This document shows positions 16,787-27,110 of a stretch of DNA of 64,000 bases, piece by piece. The stretch's first letter is position 1. Every line of letters begins with the position of its first letter. Both the position numbers and the translations under genes were made by a program. The notes below the pieces were generated by a model. It saw only the letters and a list, made by a program, of their open reading frames with translations, was not told where the DNA came from and did not search any database. The DNA is from Amycolatopsis sp. NBC_01480 (GTDB lineage Bacteria; Actinomycetota; Actinomycetes; Mycobacteriales; Pseudonocardiaceae): the NCBI RefSeq assembly GCF_036227205.1, contig NZ_CP109442.1, forward strand, positions 8,432,001 to 8,496,000, given 5' to 3'.

Positions 16787-16823
16787 AGTGTCTGGTAAAA
16801 CTTTTATCGAGGGAGCCGAGTCC

Positions 16824-17021
16824 ATGAAGATCGTTGTCGACGAGGAGAAGTGCTGTGCCGGAGGTCAATGTGTGCTGGCCGCGCCGGAGGTGTTCGACCA
16901 GCGTGACGAGGACGGAGTCGTCGTGCTGCTGAACGCGAACCCGGTGACTGAGCTGCACGAGGGTGTGCGCGAAGCCGCGCAGATCTGTCCTGCCGCCGCT
17001 ATCGCCGTTCACGAGGACTGA
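16824..17021 (+). CDS. [3Fe-4S] ferredoxin for P450
   Basis: A 65-residue electron carrier. It has the cluster ligands CCAGGQC (first and last Cys, spacing CX5C) and ICPAAAI near the C terminus, the pattern of P450-associated single-cluster 3Fe-4S ferredoxins. The position between the middle residues that is often His in this group is Gly here (CxxGGxC), which may tune the partner or potential. ATG at 16824 chosen: it follows a GGGAG, and it begins the conserved MKIVVDEEKC; an in-frame ATG 36 bases upstream would add an unconserved leader. Five bases separate it from the reductase gene. Confidence 0.9.
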   Translation: MKIVVDEEKCCAGGQCVLAAPEVFDQRDEDGVVVLLNANPVTELHEGVREAAQICPAAAIAVHED

Positions 17022-17026
17022 CCCCG

Positions 17027-18229
17027 ATGAAGCCCACGCGGATCGTGATCGTGGGAGCCGCGGCCGCCGGGCTGGCGGTCGCCGAAGGTACTCGATCGGC
17101 CGGATACGGTGGGCAGCTGGTCATGGTGGGCGACGAGGCGCACGCGCCTTACGACCGGCCGCCGCTGTCAAAGCAGGTTCTCCTCGGGGAGTGGTCTGCG
17201 GAGCGGATCGCGCTCCGCAGTGACGCGGATCTCGGCAAGCTGGGTCTCGACCTGCGGCTGGGCATTCCCGCCTCGGGTCTGGACGCCGACGCCCGCGAGC
17301 TGGTGCTCGCCGACGGCGCCCGGATCGCCTTCGATGCGCTGGTCGTCGCGACCGGGGTGCGGGCGCGGAAGCTGCCCGGCGCCCCCGAAGCGCGGAACGT
17401 CCACGTGCTGCGTGACCTCGGTGACGCGCTCGCCCTGCGGCAGCAGCTGACACCCGGCGCCCGTCTGGTGGTGATCGGCGCGGGAGTCCTCGGTGCCGAG
17501 GTCGCCGCCGTCGCCACCACGCGGCGGGCCACGGTCACCTTGGTGGATCCCGTGCCCTTGCCGATGACGCGGGTCGTGGGCGACGACGTCGGCGAGTTCA
17601 TCGCCGGTCTGCACCGTGAGCACGGGGTCGACGTGCGCTGCGGCGTGGGCGTGCGCCGGTTGCGCGAGGCCGGCGGGCAGGTGAGCACGGTCGAGCTCGA
17701 GGACGGCACGCAGGTTCGGGCCGATGTCGTCCTGGTCGCGATCGGTGCTGTTCCGGCGGTGGACTGGCTGCGCGATTCCGCGGTGCCGCTGGGCGGCGCC
17801 AAGGCCGCCGAGGGCGCGGGCGGTGTCCTGTGCGCGGCCGGCGGCAGGGCGATCGATGGCGTTTACGCGGCCGGCGACGTCGCAGCGTGGCGCACGCCGG
17901 ACGGTGACGGCTATCTGAGAGTGGAGCACCGTCTCAACGCGACAGAACAGGGCCGCGCGGTAGCGAAGTCCATTGTGGATCCCGCTTTCCGGCACGCTCC
18001 TGTCGTTCCCTACTTCTGGTCCGATCAGTACGGCCTCAAGATCCAGTCTTTCGGGCTGCCCGGCCCGGACGACGAGTTCGTCGTCGTCGAAGGCTCGCCG
18101 GCGGAGCGCCGTTTCGTCGGCGCGTACCTGCGGGCCGGAGTGGTGACCGCGGCATTGGGCGTCGGCATGCCACGCCAGTTGCGAGCGTGGCGAGCCCGGG
18201 CCGGCCACCCCGTACCGCGTGACCTCTAG
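17027..18229 (+). CDS. FAD-dependent ferredoxin reductase
   Basis: Passes electrons from NAD(P)H to the ferredoxin just upstream. The 400-residue protein has the FAD-binding Rossmann motif (VIVGAAAAGLAVAEG, a slightly altered GxGxxG), PYDRPPLSKQVLLG typical of rubredoxin/putidaredoxin reductases, the ATG motif VVATGVRARKLPGAP, an NADH-binding GAGVLGAEVAAVA, and YAAGDVAAW binding flavin near the end. A C-terminal reductase domain (YFWSDQYGLKIQSFGLPG) closes it. Its stop is followed after 31 bases by the P450, forming a complete class I electron-transfer chain. Confidence 0.93.
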   Translation: MKPTRIVIVGAAAAGLAVAEGTRSAGYGGQLVMVGDEAHAPYDRPPLSKQVLLGEWSAERIALRSDADLGKLGLDLRLGIPASGLDADARELVLADGARIAFDALVVATGVRARKLPGAPEARNVHVLRDLGDALALRQQLTPGARLVVIGAGVLGAEVAAVATTRRATVTLVDPVPLPMTRVVGDDVGEFIAGLHREHGVDVRCGVGVRRLREAGGQVSTVELEDGTQVRADVVLVAIGAVPAVDWLRDSAVPLGGAKAAEGAGGVLCAAGGRAIDGVYAAGDVAAWRTPDGDGYLRVEHRLNATEQGRAVAKSIVDPAFRHAPVVPYFWSDQYGLKIQSFGLPGPDDEFVVVEGSPAERRFVGAYLRAGVVTAALGVGMPRQLRAWRARAGHPVPRDL

Positions 18230-18260
18230 ACAGCACTTTCCCGAACTGTAGGAGACTTCC

Positions 18261-19475
18261 ATGACCGAAACCCTTGCCGACAAGCCCGGTGACCCGCTGT
18301 TCTTCCCCGCCGCGCGGAGCTGTCCCATCAGCGCGCCCCCGGCGTACACGGAGTTCCGTGAGGCCGGAGGCCTGCACAAGGTCAAGATCTGGGACGGCTC
18401 ACAGCACTGGCTCGCCACCCGGCACGAGGACATCCGCGCGGTGCTGGGCAACCCGGCCTTCAGCGCGGACGTGCGCTCAGAGGGCTTCCCGCTGGTGCAC
18501 GCCGGCCAGGACGAACAACAGGGCGGGCTGTTCCTCCGGCTCGACGATCCCGAGCACGCCCGGATGCGGCGCCTGCTCACCCGAGAGTTCAGCGTGAAAG
18601 CCACCCAGGCCCTGCGCGACGAGCTGCTGGCCATCACCGACGAGCTGATCGACGCGATGCTGGCCGACGGCGGCCCCGTCGAGTTCATCAAGCAGTTCGC
18701 CCTCCCGCTGCCCTCGCGGGCGATCTGCCTCATCCTCGGCGTCCCCTACGAGGACCGGGAGATCTTCCAACGCCACGCCGACGTCGGTACGGACCTGTCG
18801 ATCTCGCACGAAGACCGGATCACCGCACACCGGGAAACCGGCGCGTACTACGGCGAGCTGATCGAGCGCAAGCGCCGCGAACCCGGCGACGACATGATCA
18901 GCAGGCTGCTTGCCGAAGACGGATTCACCCCCGAGGACCTGCCCCGGCTCGTGGGGATCCTGGTGGGTGCCGGCCACGAGACCACCGCCAACATGCTGGG
19001 GCTCGGCACGCTGGCGTTGCTGGTCAACGACGCCGAGCGCGAGCGGCTGCGGGCGCACCCGGAGCTGGCCCCGAGCACGGCGGAGGAGATGCTGCGGTAC
19101 TGGAGCATCGTGTCGACCGACCCGCGCCGAGTCGCGCTGGAGGACGTCGAGATCGGTGGACAGCTCGTCCGCCGCGGCGAAGGGGTGATCGTCTCCCTGG
19201 TCGCGGGCAACCGTGACCAACGCCGTTTCGGCGACACCGCGGACCAGGTCGACATCGGCCGCAACGCGCGGCAGCACGTCGCCTTCGGGTTCGGCACCCA
19301 CCAGTGCCTCGGCCAGAACCTCGCTCGCGTGGAGATGCAGGTGGCGTGGCCGCGGTTGTTCGAGCGGATCCCGGACCTGCGGCTCGCGACCGGCGAGGAC
19401 GAGGTTCCGTTCAAGCTGAACTCGATCGTCTACGGCGTCAAGGAGTTGCCGGTCACGTGGGGACCGGAGCAGTGA
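18261..19475 (+). CDS. Cytochrome P450, CYP105-like
   Basis: A 404-residue haem monooxygenase. Signature elements in order: the helix C region DDPEHARMRRLLTREFS, the I-helix GAGHETTANM with oxygen-activating Thr, the K-helix ExxR in EEMLRYW, the haem loop FGFGTHQCLGQNLAR with ligand Cys (~348), and the tail YGVKELPVTW. The overall pattern, especially the C-terminal ELPVTW, resembles CYP105, a family of broad-range oxidations of natural products and xenobiotics. Electron partners are encoded immediately upstream. The substrate is unknown; neighbours (SDR, CMD) suggest hydroxylation followed by oxidation. The stop overlaps the SDR start. Confidence 0.9.
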   Translation: MTETLADKPGDPLFFPAARSCPISAPPAYTEFREAGGLHKVKIWDGSQHWLATRHEDIRAVLGNPAFSADVRSEGFPLVHAGQDEQQGGLFLRLDDPEHARMRRLLTREFSVKATQALRDELLAITDELIDAMLADGGPVEFIKQFALPLPSRAICLILGVPYEDREIFQRHADVGTDLSISHEDRITAHRETGAYYGELIERKRREPGDDMISRLLAEDGFTPEDLPRLVGILVGAGHETTANMLGLGTLALLVNDAERERLRAHPELAPSTAEEMLRYWSIVSTDPRRVALEDVEIGGQLVRRGEGVIVSLVAGNRDQRRFGDTADQVDIGRNARQHVAFGFGTHQCLGQNLARVEMQVAWPRLFERIPDLRLATGEDEVPFKLNSIVYGVKELPVTWGPEQ

Positions 19476-22022: not shown

Positions 22023-22790
22023 ATGATGCGCAGAGGTCGCCCCGCCGGCCCCACCGGCTCCGTCGTCGGCCGGACGTTGCAGATGCTGGACGCGTTCAGC
22101 GCCCAGCGCCGGGCGCTGAGCCTCAGTGAGATCGCTCGCCGGACGGACATGCCCCTGTCCACGGTGCACCGGTTGATGCACGAGCTGTGCGCGTGGGGAG
22201 CCGTCGAACGAGGTGAGGACGGCCTGTTCCGGATCGGGCTGCGCTTGTGGGAGCTGGGCTCGCTCGCGCCGCGGGGCCAAGGAGTACGGGAACACGCCCT
22301 CCCTTTTCTTGAAGATCTTTCACAAATCACCAGGGAAAACGTGCAACTGGCCGTCCGGGAGGGCGGCGAGGTGGTGTTCCTCGAGCGGATCGGCGGCACC
22401 GGCGCGGTTCCCGTCCTGACCCGGGTCGGTGGGCGTTTCGCACTCACCACTACCGGTGTCGGCCTGGTGCTGCTCGCCCACGCCCCGGCCCAGGTTCAGG
22501 AGGACGTCCTCGGCAAGCCCATTGAGCGGTACACGAGCAAGACGGTCACTGATCCCGGCCAGCTCCGCCGCATGCTCGCTGACGTGCGCGCTCAAGGCTT
22601 CGCCACCAGCGACCGGCAGATCTCCATGGACACCTTCTCGGTGGCAGCGCCCGTACAGGACGCCCACGGCCAGGTCATCGCCGCGGTCTCCCTGGTTGTC
22701 CACCACGGAAGTAGCAAGCCGCTCGCCTTGGCGCAGCTGGTGCGCACCAGCGCGCGGGCGATCTCACGGGCACTCGACACACCGATCTGA
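22023..22790 (+). CDS. IclR family transcriptional regulator
   Basis: A 255-residue regulator. Winged helix at residues ~15-75 (SVVGRTLQMLDAFSAQRRALSLSEIARRTDMPLSTVHRLM, abbreviated), then the effector-binding domain (VQLAVREGGEVVFLERIGG, GVGLVLLAHAP, DRQISMDTFSVAAPVQDAHG). IclR proteins commonly regulate aromatic catabolism such as vanillate, protocatechuate and gentisate pathways. It is encoded just upstream of, and in the same direction as, the Rieske oxygenase operon, with a ~250-base gap containing inverted repeats. It most likely controls operon B. Two adjacent ATG codons open the gene; either may be used. Confidence 0.9.
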   Translation: MMRRGRPAGPTGSVVGRTLQMLDAFSAQRRALSLSEIARRTDMPLSTVHRLMHELCAWGAVERGEDGLFRIGLRLWELGSLAPRGQGVREHALPFLEDLSQITRENVQLAVREGGEVVFLERIGGTGAVPVLTRVGGRFALTTTGVGLVLLAHAPAQVQEDVLGKPIERYTSKTVTDPGQLRRMLADVRAQGFATSDRQISMDTFSVAAPVQDAHGQVIAAVSLVVHHGSSKPLALAQLVRTSARAISRALDTPI

Positions 22791-22798
22791 TCTGGGAA

Positions 22799-22848
22799 CC
22801 CCGAACTGCCAGCGAAAGTCTTCCATTTTCCGGGAAGGCTGTTCGGGG
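22799..22848. promoter_or_regulatory. Nested inverted repeats before the Rieske operon
   Basis: Outer arms ccccgaac (22799-22806) and gttcgggg (22841-22848); inner arms cttcc (22820-22824) and ggaag (22833-22837). They lie directly after the IclR stop and ~190 bases before the oxygenase start. They could form the IclR terminator or an IclR operator; the inner symmetry resembles IclR-type TTCC...GGAA sites. No coding potential in 22850-23038. Confidence 0.4.
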
Positions 22849-23038
22849 CGAGGGGCCTGCCCGTCACGCTGTCACTCACCCGGCCGTCACCTCGCAGCCG
22901 ACAACGGAGTTCGCATGCGCAGCCCTGATCCGCGTTCCCTTCGTTGCCCGCTCGCGCGCCACCGAAGACCGGCACCGGCTTGCTTCCGGCCCGCCGGCCA
23001 TCGGCACGAACCGACCTCCATCCGAGGGGACAACGCTC

Positions 23039-24094
23039 ATGACGACCATCCCGCGCGACCAGTGGTACGTCGCCGCCTACAGCACCGAGATCACGCACGA
23101 TCTGTTCTCCCGCACCATCTGCGGTGAGCCGATCCTGTTCTGGCGCACGCGCCGCGGGGAGGTCACCGCCGTGCCCGACCGCTGCGTGCACCGGCGGTTC
23201 CCGCTCTCGCAGGCGCCGTCGCGACTCGTGGACGACCAGGTGGTCTGCGGATACCACGGGTTCACCTACGGCACGGACGGCAAGTGCGTGTCCGTGCCGG
23301 GTCAGAGCCGCATTCCGCGCACTGCCCGGCTGCTGCCGTACCCGTTGGCCGAGCAGGACTCCTTCGTGTGGGTCTTCATCGGCGACCCGGCCAAGGCGGA
23401 CACCTCGAGGATCCCGCGGGCCCCCTACCTCGACTCACCGGACTACACCGCCGTGCGGGGGATGGAACCGTTGAAAGCACGGTACTCGCTGCTGGTCGAC
23501 AACCTGCTCGACCTGTCGCACGAAACGTACCTGCACGGTGGCTACATCGGCACTCCGGAGGTGGCGGCGACCCCGACCACGACTGAAGTCGACGAGGATG
23601 CCGGCATCGTCTACGTCTCTCGTCACATGGACGACGCCGAATGCCCCCCGTTCTACGCCAAATCGACCGGCCTGGAGGGCAGGATCGCGCGATGGCAGGA
23701 CATCGAATACACGCCGCCGTGTCTGTACAAACTGCACAGTCGCATCGCGACCGTGGGCTCCGTCCCCAATCCTGACGGCAGCGACCCGGACGCTTTCCAC
23801 GTCGAGGTCGTCTACGCGATCACCCCGGAGACCGAACACTCCACCCACGACTTCTGGTCCGTGGCGCGCGACTTCGCGCTCGGCGACGGCGCGGTTTCGA
23901 AGTTCCTCGCCGAGAACAACTGCACCGTCGTCCTCCAGGACGTCGAGGCGCTTGATGTACTCGAGCAGGTCATCTTGCACGAGCCTGAGGGCTACCAGGA
24001 GCTGTCGGTCAACATCGACACCGGTGGCCTCGCAGCACGGCGGATGCTCCAGCGTATGGCGGCCCCACAACAGACCCGGACGGCCCGGGCATGA
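23039..24094 (+). CDS. VanA-like Rieske oxygenase (aromatic O-demethylase type)
   Basis: A 351-residue terminal oxygenase subunit. The Rieske [2Fe-2S] ligands are CVHRRFPLSQ (Cys, His, ~48-50) and CGYHGF (~68-71). The mononuclear iron ligands are in NLLDLSHETYLH (Asp and two His, ~158-166). Length, N terminus (IPRDQWYVAAYS...RTICGEPILFW) and lack of a beta subunit match vanillate O-demethylase and related single-component-type oxygenases, which remove a methyl group from methoxyaromatics as formaldehyde. The partner reductase is two genes downstream. Its stop overlaps the next small gene (ATGA). Substrate by inference; related enzymes also act on other aromatic acids. Confidence 0.88.
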   Translation: MTTIPRDQWYVAAYSTEITHDLFSRTICGEPILFWRTRRGEVTAVPDRCVHRRFPLSQAPSRLVDDQVVCGYHGFTYGTDGKCVSVPGQSRIPRTARLLPYPLAEQDSFVWVFIGDPAKADTSRIPRAPYLDSPDYTAVRGMEPLKARYSLLVDNLLDLSHETYLHGGYIGTPEVAATPTTTEVDEDAGIVYVSRHMDDAECPPFYAKSTGLEGRIARWQDIEYTPPCLYKLHSRIATVGSVPNPDGSDPDAFHVEVVYAITPETEHSTHDFWSVARDFALGDGAVSKFLAENNCTVVLQDVEALDVLEQVILHEPEGYQELSVNIDTGGLAARRMLQRMAAPQQTRTARA

Positions 24095-24312
24095 ACGACG
24101 TACCGGCCAACCAGCCCATGTTGTCCGGCGAGCGCGTGTACCGCATCCACTGGGTACTGGGTACGGACCGGTTGCGGGCGGTCTGCCACTGTTCCGCCGA
24201 ACGTGAGTTCGACGACCCCGTGGACCTGTGGGAATGGCTGCTCTCGCATCCCGCGGGTCACGACACGATCCGCTCCGGACCGGACCCGGCACCGGTCCTG
24301 GCTTCGCGCTGA
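24091..24312 (+). CDS. 73-aa protein embedded in Rieske operon, function unknown
   Basis: A compact protein with aromatic and charged residues: RVYRIHWVLGTDRLRAVCHC, then VDLWEWLLSHPAGH. It has a CHC pair and several His, so metal or cluster contact is possible, but no known domain is recognised. It is translationally coupled to the Rieske oxygenase (four-base overlap) and is followed after 21 bases by the reductase, so it is under strong positional selection to be made with the oxygenase. Inference: an accessory or assembly factor for the oxygenase, or a small regulatory subunit. Confidence 0.65.
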   Translation: MNDVPANQPMLSGERVYRIHWVLGTDRLRAVCHCSAEREFDDPVDLWEWLLSHPAGHDTIRSGPDPAPVLASR

Positions 24313-24333
24313 GACCAGGAGGGGAACACTCCG

Positions 24334-25308
24334 ATGAAGACCGAACCCCACGTCGAGCACGAGCTCGACCTCGTGCTCGAACGCAAGGAAACCGTTGCCG
24401 AAGGCGTCGTCCGGCTGACGCTGCGGCACCCGGAGGGCCAGTCGCTGCCGGACTGGGAGCCGGGCGCGCACCTCGACCTCGTGCTGGCCCCAGAGCTGAC
24501 CCGCCAGTACTCGCTGTGTGGCGACCCGCGCGACCGGTCGGTCCTGCAGGTGGCTGTGCTCCGTGAGGAAGCCGGGCGCGGTGGGTCCCGGCACGTGCAC
24601 GACACGCTCGCCGAGGGTCAGCGGGTGCACGTGCGCGGCCCGCGCAACCACTTCCCCCTGGTGGAGGCCAAGCGCTACCTGTTCATCGCGGGCGGCATCG
24701 GCATCACCCCGATCCTGCCGATGATCGACAAGGTGGCCGGCTTGAGCAGCGACTGGAAGCTCGTCTACGGCGGCCGGAGCCGCTCGACGATGGCATTCCG
24801 CGACGAACTCGAAACCCGCTATCCCGGTCACGTCGAGATCCACCCCCAGGACGAGCGAGGCCTGCTCGACCTGCCCGCCCTGCTCACCGAGCCCGGCGGC
24901 GACGCCGCCGAGACCGCGCTCTACTGCTGCGGGCCGGAGGCACTGCTCGGTGCCGTGGAGCAGCACTGCGTCACCCGGCCGGCTGGTGCCCTGCACGTGG
25001 AACGATTCGCGCCCAAGTCCGGCGTGAACGACGGTCCCCGCGAAGCCTTCGAGGTCGAACTGGCGCAAACCGGCACCGTCGTCCAAGTTCCCGCTGGCCG
25101 CTCCATCCTCGATGTCGTCGAGGCGTCCGGCGTGCCCGTCCTCTCTTCCTGTCAGGAGGGCACCTGCGGCACCTGCGAGACCGCAGTCCTCTCCGGGAAG
25201 CCGGATCACCGTGACTCGGTCCTCACCGACGACGAGCGGGAGGCCGGCGACGCGATGATGATCTGCGTGTCCCGCTCGTGCTCGCCCCGTCTGGTCCTCG
25301 ATCTCTGA
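24334..25308 (+). CDS. VanB-like ferredoxin-NAD(P)H oxidoreductase
   Basis: A 324-residue class IA reductase of phthalate-dioxygenase-reductase type: flavin domain first (RQYSLCGDP, the FMN-binding RxYS motif), then NAD domain (FIAGGIGITPILPM; YCCGPEALL), and a C-terminal plant-type [2Fe-2S] domain with ligands CQEGTCGTC (~272-280) and a later Cys. It feeds electrons from NAD(P)H to the Rieske oxygenase encoded upstream. A strong AGGAGGGG ribosome site precedes the ATG. Because the CYP199-like P450 directly downstream has no own redox partners here, this reductase may also serve it. Confidence 0.92.
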   Translation: MKTEPHVEHELDLVLERKETVAEGVVRLTLRHPEGQSLPDWEPGAHLDLVLAPELTRQYSLCGDPRDRSVLQVAVLREEAGRGGSRHVHDTLAEGQRVHVRGPRNHFPLVEAKRYLFIAGGIGITPILPMIDKVAGLSSDWKLVYGGRSRSTMAFRDELETRYPGHVEIHPQDERGLLDLPALLTEPGGDAAETALYCCGPEALLGAVEQHCVTRPAGALHVERFAPKSGVNDGPREAFEVELAQTGTVVQVPAGRSILDVVEASGVPVLSSCQEGTCGTCETAVLSGKPDHRDSVLTDDEREAGDAMMICVSRSCSPRLVLDL

Positions 25309-25326
25309 CTCACGCAGGAGACACCG

Positions 25327-26529
25327 ATGCCCGCCACCGCAGGAAACAGCACGGCCCCCGTGCTCGGCGTCGACCCGTTCGCCGAGACGAACCTCGCCGA
25401 TCCGTATCCCATGCACGAGGACCTACGCGAGTCCGGCGCCGTGGTTTACCTCGAGCGCTACCGGGTTTGGGCCATGGCCCGGCACGCGCAGGTGTATGCC
25501 GCGCTGACCGACCACGAGACATTCTGCTCCAGCCGCGGCGCAGGACTGTCCGACTTCCACAAGGAAAAGCCCTGGCGGCCGCCGAGTCTGCTGCTCGAAG
25601 CCGACCCGCCGGACCACGCCGTGACCAGGGGCGCGATGGGGAAGGTGATTTCGGCGAGCACCGTCCGCGGATTCCGGGAGACATTCCGGGCCGAGGCCGA
25701 AACGCTCGCCGACGAACTCGTCGCCCGAGGACGATTCGACGCCGTGACCGATCTCGCCGAACGTTATCCGCTGAAGGTGTTTCCCGACGCAGTCGGCCTG
25801 CCGGTCGAAGGGCGGGAGAATCTGCTGCCTTACGGCGCTCTGGCATTCAACGCCTTCGGCCCGCACAACCACCTCCTCGAACGTGCCCTGGCCGGCGCGG
25901 CGCCCGTCCAGCAGTGGATCTGGGACAGCTGTCAACGAGACGCGCTCGCCCCTGGCAGGCTGGGGGCGCAGGTGTGGGAGTCCGCCGACCGCGGCGAGAT
26001 CACCCACGAGCAAGCCCCCATGCTGGTCCGGTCGCTGCTGTCCGCCGGCGTCGACACAACCGTCTACGGCATCGGCAACACCATCCAGGCGCTGAGCGCC
26101 AACCCCCAGCAATGGGCGCGCCTGCGCGAAAAACCCTCACTGGCACGCTTCGCCTTCGACGAGGCCTTGCGCTACGAATCGCCCGTGCAGACCTTCTTCC
26201 GGACCACCACCCGCGAGATCGAGGTAGCCGGGGTCCGGATCCCCGAGGGAGAGAAAGTACTGCTCTTCCTCGGCGCCGCCAACCGGGACCCACGGAAGTG
26301 GGGACCGGACGCCGACCGGCTGGACATCACCCGCAAGGCCGCCGGGCACGTGGCCTTCGGCATGGGCATCCACCAATGCGTCGGACAACCCATCGCCCGC
26401 CTTGAAGTCGAACTCGTGCTCACCGCACTCGCCAAGCGGGTCGACCGGCTCGAATCCGCCGGCGAGCCGGTTCCAAAGTTGAACAACACCCTCAAGGGCT
26501 GGAGCAGCGCTCCCGTCCAGGCAATGTGA
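25327..26529 (+). CDS. Cytochrome P450, CYP199-like (para-substituted benzoate type)
   Basis: A 400-residue P450. It contains segments characteristic of CYP199A enzymes: GLSDFHKEKPWRPPSLLLEA, GRENLLPYGALAFNAFGP, VRSLLSAGVDTTVYGIG (I-helix Thr), YESPVQTFFRTTTREIEVAG, FGMGIHQCVGQPIARLE (Cys ligand ~350), and LNNTLKGW. Known CYP199A enzymes O-demethylate or hydroxylate para-substituted benzoates such as 4-methoxybenzoate. In proteobacteria they use a [2Fe-2S] ferredoxin; no such gene is adjacent here. Located 18 bases after the VanB-like reductase in the same operon. The family assignment is by memory of motif strings, so subfamily remains open. Confidence 0.85.
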   Translation: MPATAGNSTAPVLGVDPFAETNLADPYPMHEDLRESGAVVYLERYRVWAMARHAQVYAALTDHETFCSSRGAGLSDFHKEKPWRPPSLLLEADPPDHAVTRGAMGKVISASTVRGFRETFRAEAETLADELVARGRFDAVTDLAERYPLKVFPDAVGLPVEGRENLLPYGALAFNAFGPHNHLLERALAGAAPVQQWIWDSCQRDALAPGRLGAQVWESADRGEITHEQAPMLVRSLLSAGVDTTVYGIGNTIQALSANPQQWARLREKPSLARFAFDEALRYESPVQTFFRTTTREIEVAGVRIPEGEKVLLFLGAANRDPRKWGPDADRLDITRKAAGHVAFGMGIHQCVGQPIARLEVELVLTALAKRVDRLESAGEPVPKLNNTLKGWSSAPVQAM

Positions 26530-26555
26530 CGCCACCTGATAGCGAAAGAAGATTG

Positions 26556-26707
26556 ATGTCACAGAAAGTTCGCGCGGTCGTGGCCCACGCCCAGGGCAAG
26601 CCGGTCTGCGTGGAGGTGATGTGGTCCCCGGGCCTGGCGAGGCGGTGGTCCAGGTCCGGGCGTGCGGCCTGTGCCACACCCAGCCCCGTGAAGCCTGCGA
26701 AACAGAC
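26556..26707 (+). pseudogene. Broken N terminus of mycothiol-dependent formaldehyde dehydrogenase
   Basis: ATG at 26556 opens MSQKVRAVVAHAQGKPVCVE, the start of S-(hydroxymethyl)mycothiol dehydrogenase (zinc alcohol dehydrogenase family). The frame then shifts; the true continuation in another frame reads VVPGPGEAVVQVRACGLCHT, including the first zinc Cys. After ~50 codons similarity ends and about 310 residues are missing. The first frame happens to stay open into the VOC gene. The enzyme would detoxify formaldehyde made by O-demethylation, so this is a loss of the pathway's expected last step at this locus. Confidence 0.75.
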
Positions 26708-26741
26708 AGGAGCTTCTGACATGAAAAGAAGGAGCGTCACC

Positions 26742-27110
26742 ATGCCAGCCACCGGCCCCGACTTCATCTCCCTGCAAGCTCGCGACCTCGACGCTTCGCA
26801 GGCGTTCTACGAGCAGTACCTCGGCCTCGTGCGCTCCCCGGTGGGCCCTCCGCACGCCGTCGTCTTCGAGACGAAGCCGATCGCGTTCGCTCTCCGCAAC
26901 GTTGTTCCTGGCGCCGACCTCGCGTCCGTCACCCAGCCCGGCATCGGTGCCGCGAGCTGGCTCCACGCCACCGACGTCCAGGACATTCACGATGCCCTCG
27001 TCGCCGACGGCCACACGATTGTCTCCGCGCCGATCGACGGGCCCTTCGGCCGGACGTTCACCTTCGCCGACCCCGACGGATACCAGGTCACTCTCCACGA
27101 CCGCTCCTGA
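26742..27110 (+). CDS. VOC-family (glyoxalase/bleomycin-resistance-like) protein
   Basis: A 122-residue single-domain protein with the beta-alpha-beta-beta-beta repeats of the vicinal oxygen chelate fold: FISLQARDLDASQAFYEQYL, then ADGHTIVSAPIDGPFGRTF and FADPDGYQVTLHDRS with the usual C-terminal motif. Start chosen at the ATG preceded by GAAGGAG at eight bases; an ATG 21 bases upstream is in frame. Such proteins bind metal and may be dioxygenases, isomerases or binding proteins. It follows the broken dehydrogenase and is the last gene of operon B. No specific reaction can be assigned. Confidence 0.82.
   Translation: MPATGPDFISLQARDLDASQAFYEQYLGLVRSPVGPPHAVVFETKPIAFALRNVVPGADLASVTQPGIGAASWLHATDVQDIHDALVADGHTIVSAPIDGPFGRTFTFADPDGYQVTLHDRS

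What the first reader, a model, noticed from the sequence alone, without database searches (positions are those of the whole stretch)
23039..27110. Operon joining a Rieske O-demethylase, a CYP199-like P450, one shared reductase and a novel 73-aa protein
Seen: VanA-like oxygenase, 73-aa gene (4-base overlap), VanB-like reductase, CYP199-like P450, in tight order without any P450-specific ferredoxin. Known: VanA/VanB and CYP199A both act on methoxy- or para-substituted benzoates but normally need separate redox chains. Inference: one reductase with its own plant-type [2Fe-2S] domain may feed both a Rieske enzyme and a P450, with the small protein as assembly or coupling factor. I know of no described system with this composition.
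Basis: partly seen in the sequence, partly recalled or inferred. Interest (0 to 1): 0.75.

Follow-up and report, generated by a model that had tools for sequence, protein, structure and literature searches.

The report
Vanillate demethylase operon with added P450
A soil actinomycete operon appears to power two unrelated methyl-removing enzymes for lignin-type compounds from one shared electron-supplying protein, and its small extra protein looks like an overlooked companion of many actinobacterial vanillate demethylases.

Summary
The four genes are real and where stated. The core (Rieske oxygenase VanA, 73-aa protein, VanB-type reductase, IclR regulator) is a common actinobacterial vanillate-demethylase module. 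The 73-aa protein is not peculiar to this strain: of 150 genomes, 53 have VanA and 52 the small gene; the exception keeps a remnant. It goes with VanA, not with the P450, though some VanA-VanB pairs lack it. CYP199A P450s driven by a flavin/iron-sulfur reductase are known (PbdA/PbdB), so "separate redox chains" was only partly right. Unusual is one reductase placed between VanA and the P450. This order was found in 8 genomes of four genera, one copy on a plasmid. Reductases of the window's P450 clade fall on the VanB side of a VanB/PbdB split, 17 of 17 with a complete one. One genome has VanB-type reductase plus P450 without VanA; two have VanA plus small gene without an adjacent reductase, their VanB-type reductase sitting with the P450 elsewhere. 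Best reading: VanB feeds both, so veratrate is para-demethylated by the P450, then meta-demethylated by VanA. Sharing is inferred, not shown. New variant of a known kind.

The parts
22023..22790 (+). IclR-family regulator (PcaR/PcaU/PobR-like)
   Evidence: Pfam IclR_C 5.8e-32; NCBIfam best TIGR02431, below cut-off; IclR homologue in 105 of 112 related stretches
23039..24094 (+). VanA-type Rieske O-demethylase, oxygenase component
   Evidence: Rieske plus VanA_C; Rieske and mononuclear-iron motifs; 68-89% identical VanAs in 52 of 149 other genomes searched
24091..24312 (+). 73-aa VanA-associated small protein; invariant Cys32 and Cys34, His53 in 81 of 82, mostly a further His at 56 or 57
   Evidence: ATGA/GTGA overlap with vanA; beta-beta-beta-alpha AlphaFold model
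24334..25308 (+). VanB-type NAD(P)H reductase (flavin FNR domain plus C-terminal [2Fe-2S] ferredoxin domain), proposed shared electron donor
   Evidence: on the VanB side of the VanB/PbdB split, 100/97 support
25327..26529 (+). CYP199A-family P450, VanB-linked clade
   Evidence: 510 bits to 2fr7; R84, S87, S236 and FNAF 174-177 correspond to the carboxylate and aromatic pocket residues given for PbdA; P450 tree
26556..26683 (+). decayed 5' fragment of a mycothiol-dependent formaldehyde dehydrogenase gene
   Evidence: 72% and 79% identity in two frames to the intact gene near the P450 operon of G783, which is TIGR03451, 666 bits; described only

Best explanation
This is an actinobacterial vanillate O-demethylase operon (VanA oxygenase, a small accessory protein, VanB reductase, IclR control) to which a CYP199A P450 has been added downstream. 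VanB takes electrons from NAD(P)H through its flavin and passes them through its own C-terminal [2Fe-2S] domain to two acceptors: the Rieske cluster of VanA and the heme of the P450. The P450 removes para methyl groups (p-methoxybenzoate, veratrate, isovanillate) and VanA removes the meta one (vanillate), so one operon could take veratrate to protocatechuate with one reductase. The small protein is a companion of VanA, made with it by translational coupling; it probably binds a metal through Cys32, Cys34, His53 and a His at 56 or 57, and stabilises or matures VanA. Shown here: gene content, conservation, gene order, clades. Inferred: electron sharing, substrates, metal binding.
For: The order recurs in 8 genomes: window, G004, G069 (same genus), G083 = Pseudonocardia oroxyli, G995 = plasmid pBCI1-2 of Pseudonocardia sp. 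EC080619-01, G471 = Saccharopolyspora shandongensis, G469 and G470 = Streptomyces ochraceiscleroticus and S. violens. PbdB-group and VanB-group reductases separate with 100/97 support, and all 11 reductases of the window's kind are on the VanB side; with more rows, 17 of 17 (quick method, split 99). Their P450s form one clade (20 rows, 94/99), while their reductases do not (AU test p 2.8e-7 for 11 rows; p 2.8e-11 for 5 window-type rows; groups set by gene order, a quick tree had been seen). So one P450 lineage sits beside several different VanBs. G783 has VanB-side reductase plus P450 and no VanA at E 1e-40. In G970 and G1026, VanA plus the small gene have no reductase within their 18-kb stretches, and a VanB-side reductase sits with the P450 elsewhere. 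G379's P450 has no adjacent reductase, and the only reductase of this type in that genome (E 1e-55) follows VanA and the small gene. The window's genome has one CYP199 at E 1e-100 (23 of 66 candidates scored), and its two next-best reductases, 50% and 47% identical, lie outside the PbdB group (long branches, place unsure). Closest solved relatives of the reductase are the reductase halves of P450 fusions (6kbh 278 bits, 6laa 251), ahead of phthalate dioxygenase reductase (211). PbdB is a precedent that drives a CYP199A (PMC11530827).
Against: No biochemistry; adjacency does not prove electron transfer. A class I donor pair (4Fe-4S-type ferredoxin 16788-17021, ferredoxin reductase 17027-18229) lies 7 kb upstream beside another P450, and the sister group of this P450 clade is linked to such ferredoxin reductases. 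Two P450s of the clade have no reductase beside them (G379, G976), one has only a fragment (G970 C49), and G976 has no VanA either. Three of the 17 reductases (L204, L360, L361) form a long-branched group whose place was unresolved in one tree. Two of the 8 genomes (G469, G471) also hold a PbdB-group reductase-P450 pair, and G069 a second CYP199 linked to a ferredoxin reductase. Four-gene operons are a minority: 7 of 96 distinct reductases that follow VanA and the small gene, plus G995 found later. Whether G970 and G1026 hold further reductases was not searched.
Confidence: 0.62

Rival explanations
1. The P450 is only co-regulated with VanA/VanB; its electrons come from the class I ferredoxin and ferredoxin reductase 7 kb upstream or from other cellular ferredoxins.
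For: A ferredoxin, ferredoxin reductase and P450 set lies at 16788-19475. CYP199s of the sister group are linked to ferredoxin reductases. Two P450s of the window's clade lack an adjacent reductase.
Against: That upstream set has its own P450. In the window's P450 clade, 17 of the 20 P450s have a complete reductase beside them and all 17 of these are on the VanB side. G783 keeps the VanB-type reductase with the P450 although VanA is not found.
Confidence: 0.2
2. The reductase serves mainly the P450, or mainly VanA, and the other enzyme is a passenger or uses another PFOR-type reductase of the genome.
For: The genome has two other related reductases, 50% and 47% identical. In G783 the VanB-side reductase goes with a P450 without VanA.
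Against: Those two reductases have no CYP199 or VanA in their 14-kb stretches, although one has a different P450 about 2.4 kb away. VanA and P450 active-site motifs are intact.
Confidence: 0.1
3. The 73-aa protein is the coupling factor that lets VanB talk to the P450.
For: It lies between VanA and VanB. In one strain it is fused to the N-terminus of VanB.
Against: 89 distinct modules have it with no P450 directly downstream (86 of these stretches hold at least 800 nt downstream). Two VanA-VanB-P450 operons lack it. It stays with VanA where no reductase is adjacent.
Confidence: 0.05

Closest known systems
PbdA/PbdB of Rhodococcus jostii RHA1 (CYP199A P450 plus cognate reductase; PMC11530827, abstract and passages read)
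   Same: CYP199A P450 with the same carboxylate-binding residues; flavin and iron-sulfur reductase; para-methoxybenzoates as substrates there
   Different: There the reductase is the P450's own; here it is VanB-group and lies inside a VanA operon. RHA1's PbdB sequence was not placed in the trees: the name PbdB group is given here to reductases beside stand-alone CYP199s.
Two-component vanillate O-demethylase VanA/VanB, actinobacterial type II (PMC9867520, passages and section 14 read)
   Same: VanA-type Rieske oxygenase and VanB-type reductase
   Different: Adds a conserved small gene and, in a minority, a P450. The passages read name only two components. Type II membership of this VanA was not tested in a tree.
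CYP199A2/A4 of Rhodopseudomonas (class I)
   Same: Closest solved P450 structures
   Different: They use a separate ferredoxin and ferredoxin reductase (recalled); none in this operon
CYP116B self-sufficient P450s (PMC11889516, passages read)
   Same: P450 driven by a phthalate-family reductase; closest solved relatives of this reductase are P450 fusions (that they are CYP116B is recalled)
   Different: Fused single chain; no Rieske partner
GcoA/GcoB guaiacol demethylase (recalled; PMC6021390 seen as search listing and start of abstract only)
   Same: Two-component P450 demethylase whose reductase holds its own [2Fe-2S] domain (recalled)
   Different: Different P450 family and domain order (recalled); not known to be shared with a Rieske enzyme

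Membership tests
CYP199A P450 | Closest to CYP199A members; heme-Cys and I-helix motifs | tested here: met
   510 bits to 2fr7 over residues 8-398; motifs located
CYP199A P450 | Arg-Ser-Ser carboxylate clamp and Phe pocket for para-substituted benzoates | tested here: met
   R84, S87, S236, FNAF 174-177 against PbdA residues named in PMC11530827
PbdAB-type two-component system | P450 plus dedicated PbdB-group reductase | tested here: not met
   Reductase lies on the VanB side, 100/97 support. RHA1 PbdB itself was not placed.
Vanillate O-demethylase VanA/VanB | Rieske plus VanA_C oxygenase next to FNR-Fer2 reductase | tested here: met
Vanillate O-demethylase VanA/VanB | Demethylates vanillate | not testable with these tools
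   No assay
Class I bacterial P450 system | Own ferredoxin and ferredoxin reductase in the operon | tested here: not met
   None seen in 22023-27110; one set lies 7 kb upstream
Known small-protein families (Pfam) | 73-aa protein matches a curated model | tested here: not met
   No family at E 0.001; 33 members scanned, only weak hits (best E 0.024); no solved-sequence or fold match of note
Shared-reductase system | One reductase turns over both oxygenases | not testable with these tools
   Only indirect comparative evidence

The most novel reading that the evidence does not exclude
A single natural NAD(P)H reductase serves both a heme P450 and a Rieske non-heme iron oxygenase acting in sequence on one lignin-derived substrate, reached when one CYP199A lineage came to use resident VanBs. 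In addition, many actinobacterial vanillate O-demethylases are three-part systems with an overlooked small metal-binding VanA companion.
Probability: 0.45. Interest if true: 0.7.

Novelty: new variant of a known kind. Interest (0 to 1): 0.5.

Why it matters
O-demethylation limits bacterial use of lignin aromatics. A reductase that drives both para (P450) and meta (Rieske) demethylation would simplify engineered pathways, and this P450 lineage offers natural pairs for studying how redox partners are switched. If the small protein is needed for full activity of those VanAs that have it, two-gene constructs of such enzymes have been incomplete.

Tried and rejected
Considered and rejected: a strain-specific 73-aa orphan; the 73-aa protein as a P450 coupling factor; the small protein as a fixed part of every such VanA-VanB pair (lacking in G469 C20, G470 C3, G591, G682, and lost in G048); the glyoxalase-like ORF as part of the unit; a PbdB-group origin of the reductase. 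Fold search of the small protein gave nothing significant (0 of 660 matches at E 0.001); the profile search of solved sequences gave one match at E 0.58. Searching the protein database for fusions of the small domain found one only. My first Pfam, NCBIfam and tblastn runs of the glyoxalase-like ORF used a start one base off; Pfam and tblastn were redone. The second structure-prediction job was not used. Literature: library searches listed no paper whose title or abstract start describes a Rieske oxygenase and a P450 sharing one reductase, or the small gene; most hits were seen as listings only. The 2014 Streptomyces VanAB paper (reference seen) was not looked for by id, and the 2024 Amycolatopsis magusensis paper (title seen in a reference list) is not held.
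Full report
What is there. The window lies at C1:8432001-8496000 of a 10.1 Mb genome. Cofactor and active-site motifs were located in all three enzymes.

The small protein. It has 110 homologues in the protein database. In 150 genomes (own genome included) the VanA query at E 1e-100 hits 53 and the small-protein query at E 0.001 hits 52; the 52 are a subset of the 53. In the exception, G048, only the out-of-frame end of the small gene is seen between open vanA and vanB frames (read by eye). Among 112 loci held (60 named, 52 from genome handles, some of them the same genome; all fetched with the small protein as bait), the oxygenase is directly upstream in 112 and the reductase directly downstream in 111 (the exception is L080, Streptomyces mexicanus). 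Of 96 distinct junctions all 96 have the same relative frame; the script put the small gene's start at -4 in 90 and chose another start in 6, but the printed junction reads ATGA or GTGA in all 96. In an ungapped core from 82 of the 96 modules (gapped or short ones dropped), Trp21, Gly24, Asp26, Leu28, Cys32, Cys34, Pro43, Trp47 and Trp49 are invariant; position 53 is His in 81 and Cys in 1. The pattern Cys-x-Cys ... His with a nearby second His in most, and the His-to-Cys swap, suggest a metal site; this is inference. AlphaFold gives a beta-beta-beta-alpha core (block pLDDT 86-94, overall 70, pTM 0.50) with no significant fold match.

Against a fixed third subunit. Four VanA-VanB pairs of 69-72% VanA identity lack the small gene: G469 C20, G470 C3, and the VanA-VanB-P450 operons of G591 and G682. 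For it: in G970 and G1026 VanA and the small gene stand together with no reductase in the 18-kb stretches. So the small protein is tied to VanA more than to VanB or the P450, and is not strictly required by all.

The reductase and the P450. Stand-alone CYP199 genes in these actinobacteria mostly have a reductase directly upstream; this is the PbdA/PbdB type of arrangement (PMC11530827). In a careful tree of 79 reductases (thinned at 80% from the 143 rows; the two distant reductases of the window's genome left out), 27 of the 28 rows put in the PbdB group form a clade (100/97). The 28th, L204, falls on the other side, and the group named with it is one side of a branch at 96/87. All 11 reductases of the window's kind are on the VanB side. 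In a quick tree with seven more rows the split holds (99), with L351, L352 and L354 on the VanB side and L204, L360 and L361 as a long-branched group there too. In the first quick tree L204 was unresolved. In the careful P450 tree (40 rows; rows outside the named set thinned at 75%), 15 P450s with PbdB-type neighbours split from the rest at 100/99. The rest are a group linked to ferredoxin reductases (seen in 4 of 5) and a 20-row group that holds the window, support 94/99. In that 20-row group 17 P450s have a complete reductase beside them, 8 of these in full four-gene order and 2 as VanA-VanB-P450; 2 have none (L201, L355) and 1 a fragment (L353). The AU test rejects a single clade for the reductases beside this P450 group. 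The P450 lineage has therefore been beside several different VanBs; gain, loss and transfer cannot be told apart. One four-gene operon is on a mobilizable plasmid, which fits transfer.

Split genomes. G783 has the VanB-side reductase and P450 but no VanA at E 1e-40. G340, G919 and G920, of the long-branched group, have none either. G338 keeps a separate VanA-small-VanB module. G379's P450 stands alone and its only reductase at E 1e-55 follows VanA and the small gene on another contig; a weaker VanA relative (44%) lies on the P450's contig. Against: G976 has a P450 of this clade with neither adjacent reductase nor VanA.

Own genome. One CYP199 at E 1e-100 (23 of 66 first-look candidates scored), one strong VanA (three other hits are weak), and 13 reductase hits, of which two besides the operon's own exceed 200 bits. 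Neither has a CYP199 or VanA in its 14-kb stretch. The rival donor, a ferredoxin and ferredoxin reductase with its own P450, is at 16788-19475.

Function. P450 residues that hold the substrate carboxylate in PbdA are conserved. PbdA demethylates p-methoxybenzoate, veratrate and isovanillate (PMC11530827). VanA enzymes demethylate the meta position (PMC9867520, passages). Hence the proposed route veratrate to vanillate to protocatechuate. O-demethylation releases formaldehyde; an intact S-(hydroxymethyl)mycothiol dehydrogenase gene lies near the P450 operon of G783, and a 79% identical gene near that of G070. A decayed piece of the same gene follows the P450 here. G070 is probably A. magusensis (contig length 9443615), for which a two-component 4-methoxybenzoate system has been published (title only seen); its P450 operon is PbdB-type and separate from its VanA-small-VanB module.

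Verdict. The composition is a real, recurrent, minority arrangement. The parts are known; sharing of one reductase is the new element and remains inferred. The small protein as an overlooked VanA companion is the second point of interest.

Noticed in passing
window 16788-19475 +: Class I P450 operon: 4Fe-4S-type ferredoxin (Fer4_13), ferredoxin reductase and P450, followed by an SDR and a TetR regulator.
   Followed up: partly
window 26556-26683 +: Decayed 5' piece of a mycothiol-dependent formaldehyde dehydrogenase gene right after the P450; an intact relative lies near P450 operons in G783 and G070.
   Followed up: partly
L378:9601-10885 and L379:8118-9511: VanA plus small gene without any adjacent reductase in two Pseudonocardia-group genomes (G970, G1026), whose VanB-side reductase sits with the P450 elsewhere.
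   Followed up: partly
L375 and L376: VanA-VanB pairs without the small gene in two Streptomyces that also carry modules with it.
   Followed up: partly
L113:6966-8048: Natural fusion of the small protein to VanB in Amycolatopsis sp. 195334CR; the only such fusion found.
   Followed up: yes
L307 (G048): Small gene lost between vanA and vanB, with only its 3' end left out of frame.
   Followed up: partly
L377 (NZ_CP012185.1 505851-516840): Four-gene operon on an 850 kb mobilizable plasmid of a Pseudonocardia from an Apterostigma ant, with an MFS transporter gene overlapping the start of vanA.
   Followed up: partly
L182-L185, L239: CYP199 group linked to an IclR gene and a downstream ferredoxin reductase: a third redox wiring of CYP199, sister to the VanB-linked clade.
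   Followed up: partly
L204, L360, L361: P450-reductase pairs of a long-branched reductase group (about 50% identity to this VanB) in genomes where no VanA was found.
   Followed up: no
L248 (S. ochraceiscleroticus), L247 and L086 (S. violens): Two VanA-small modules side by side in opposite orientation, only one of them with the P450.
   Followed up: no
NZ_CP108001.1 51081-51212: Small gene of a Streptomyces plasmid VanA module appears unannotated: the match lies under the VanB and oxygenase features.
   Followed up: no
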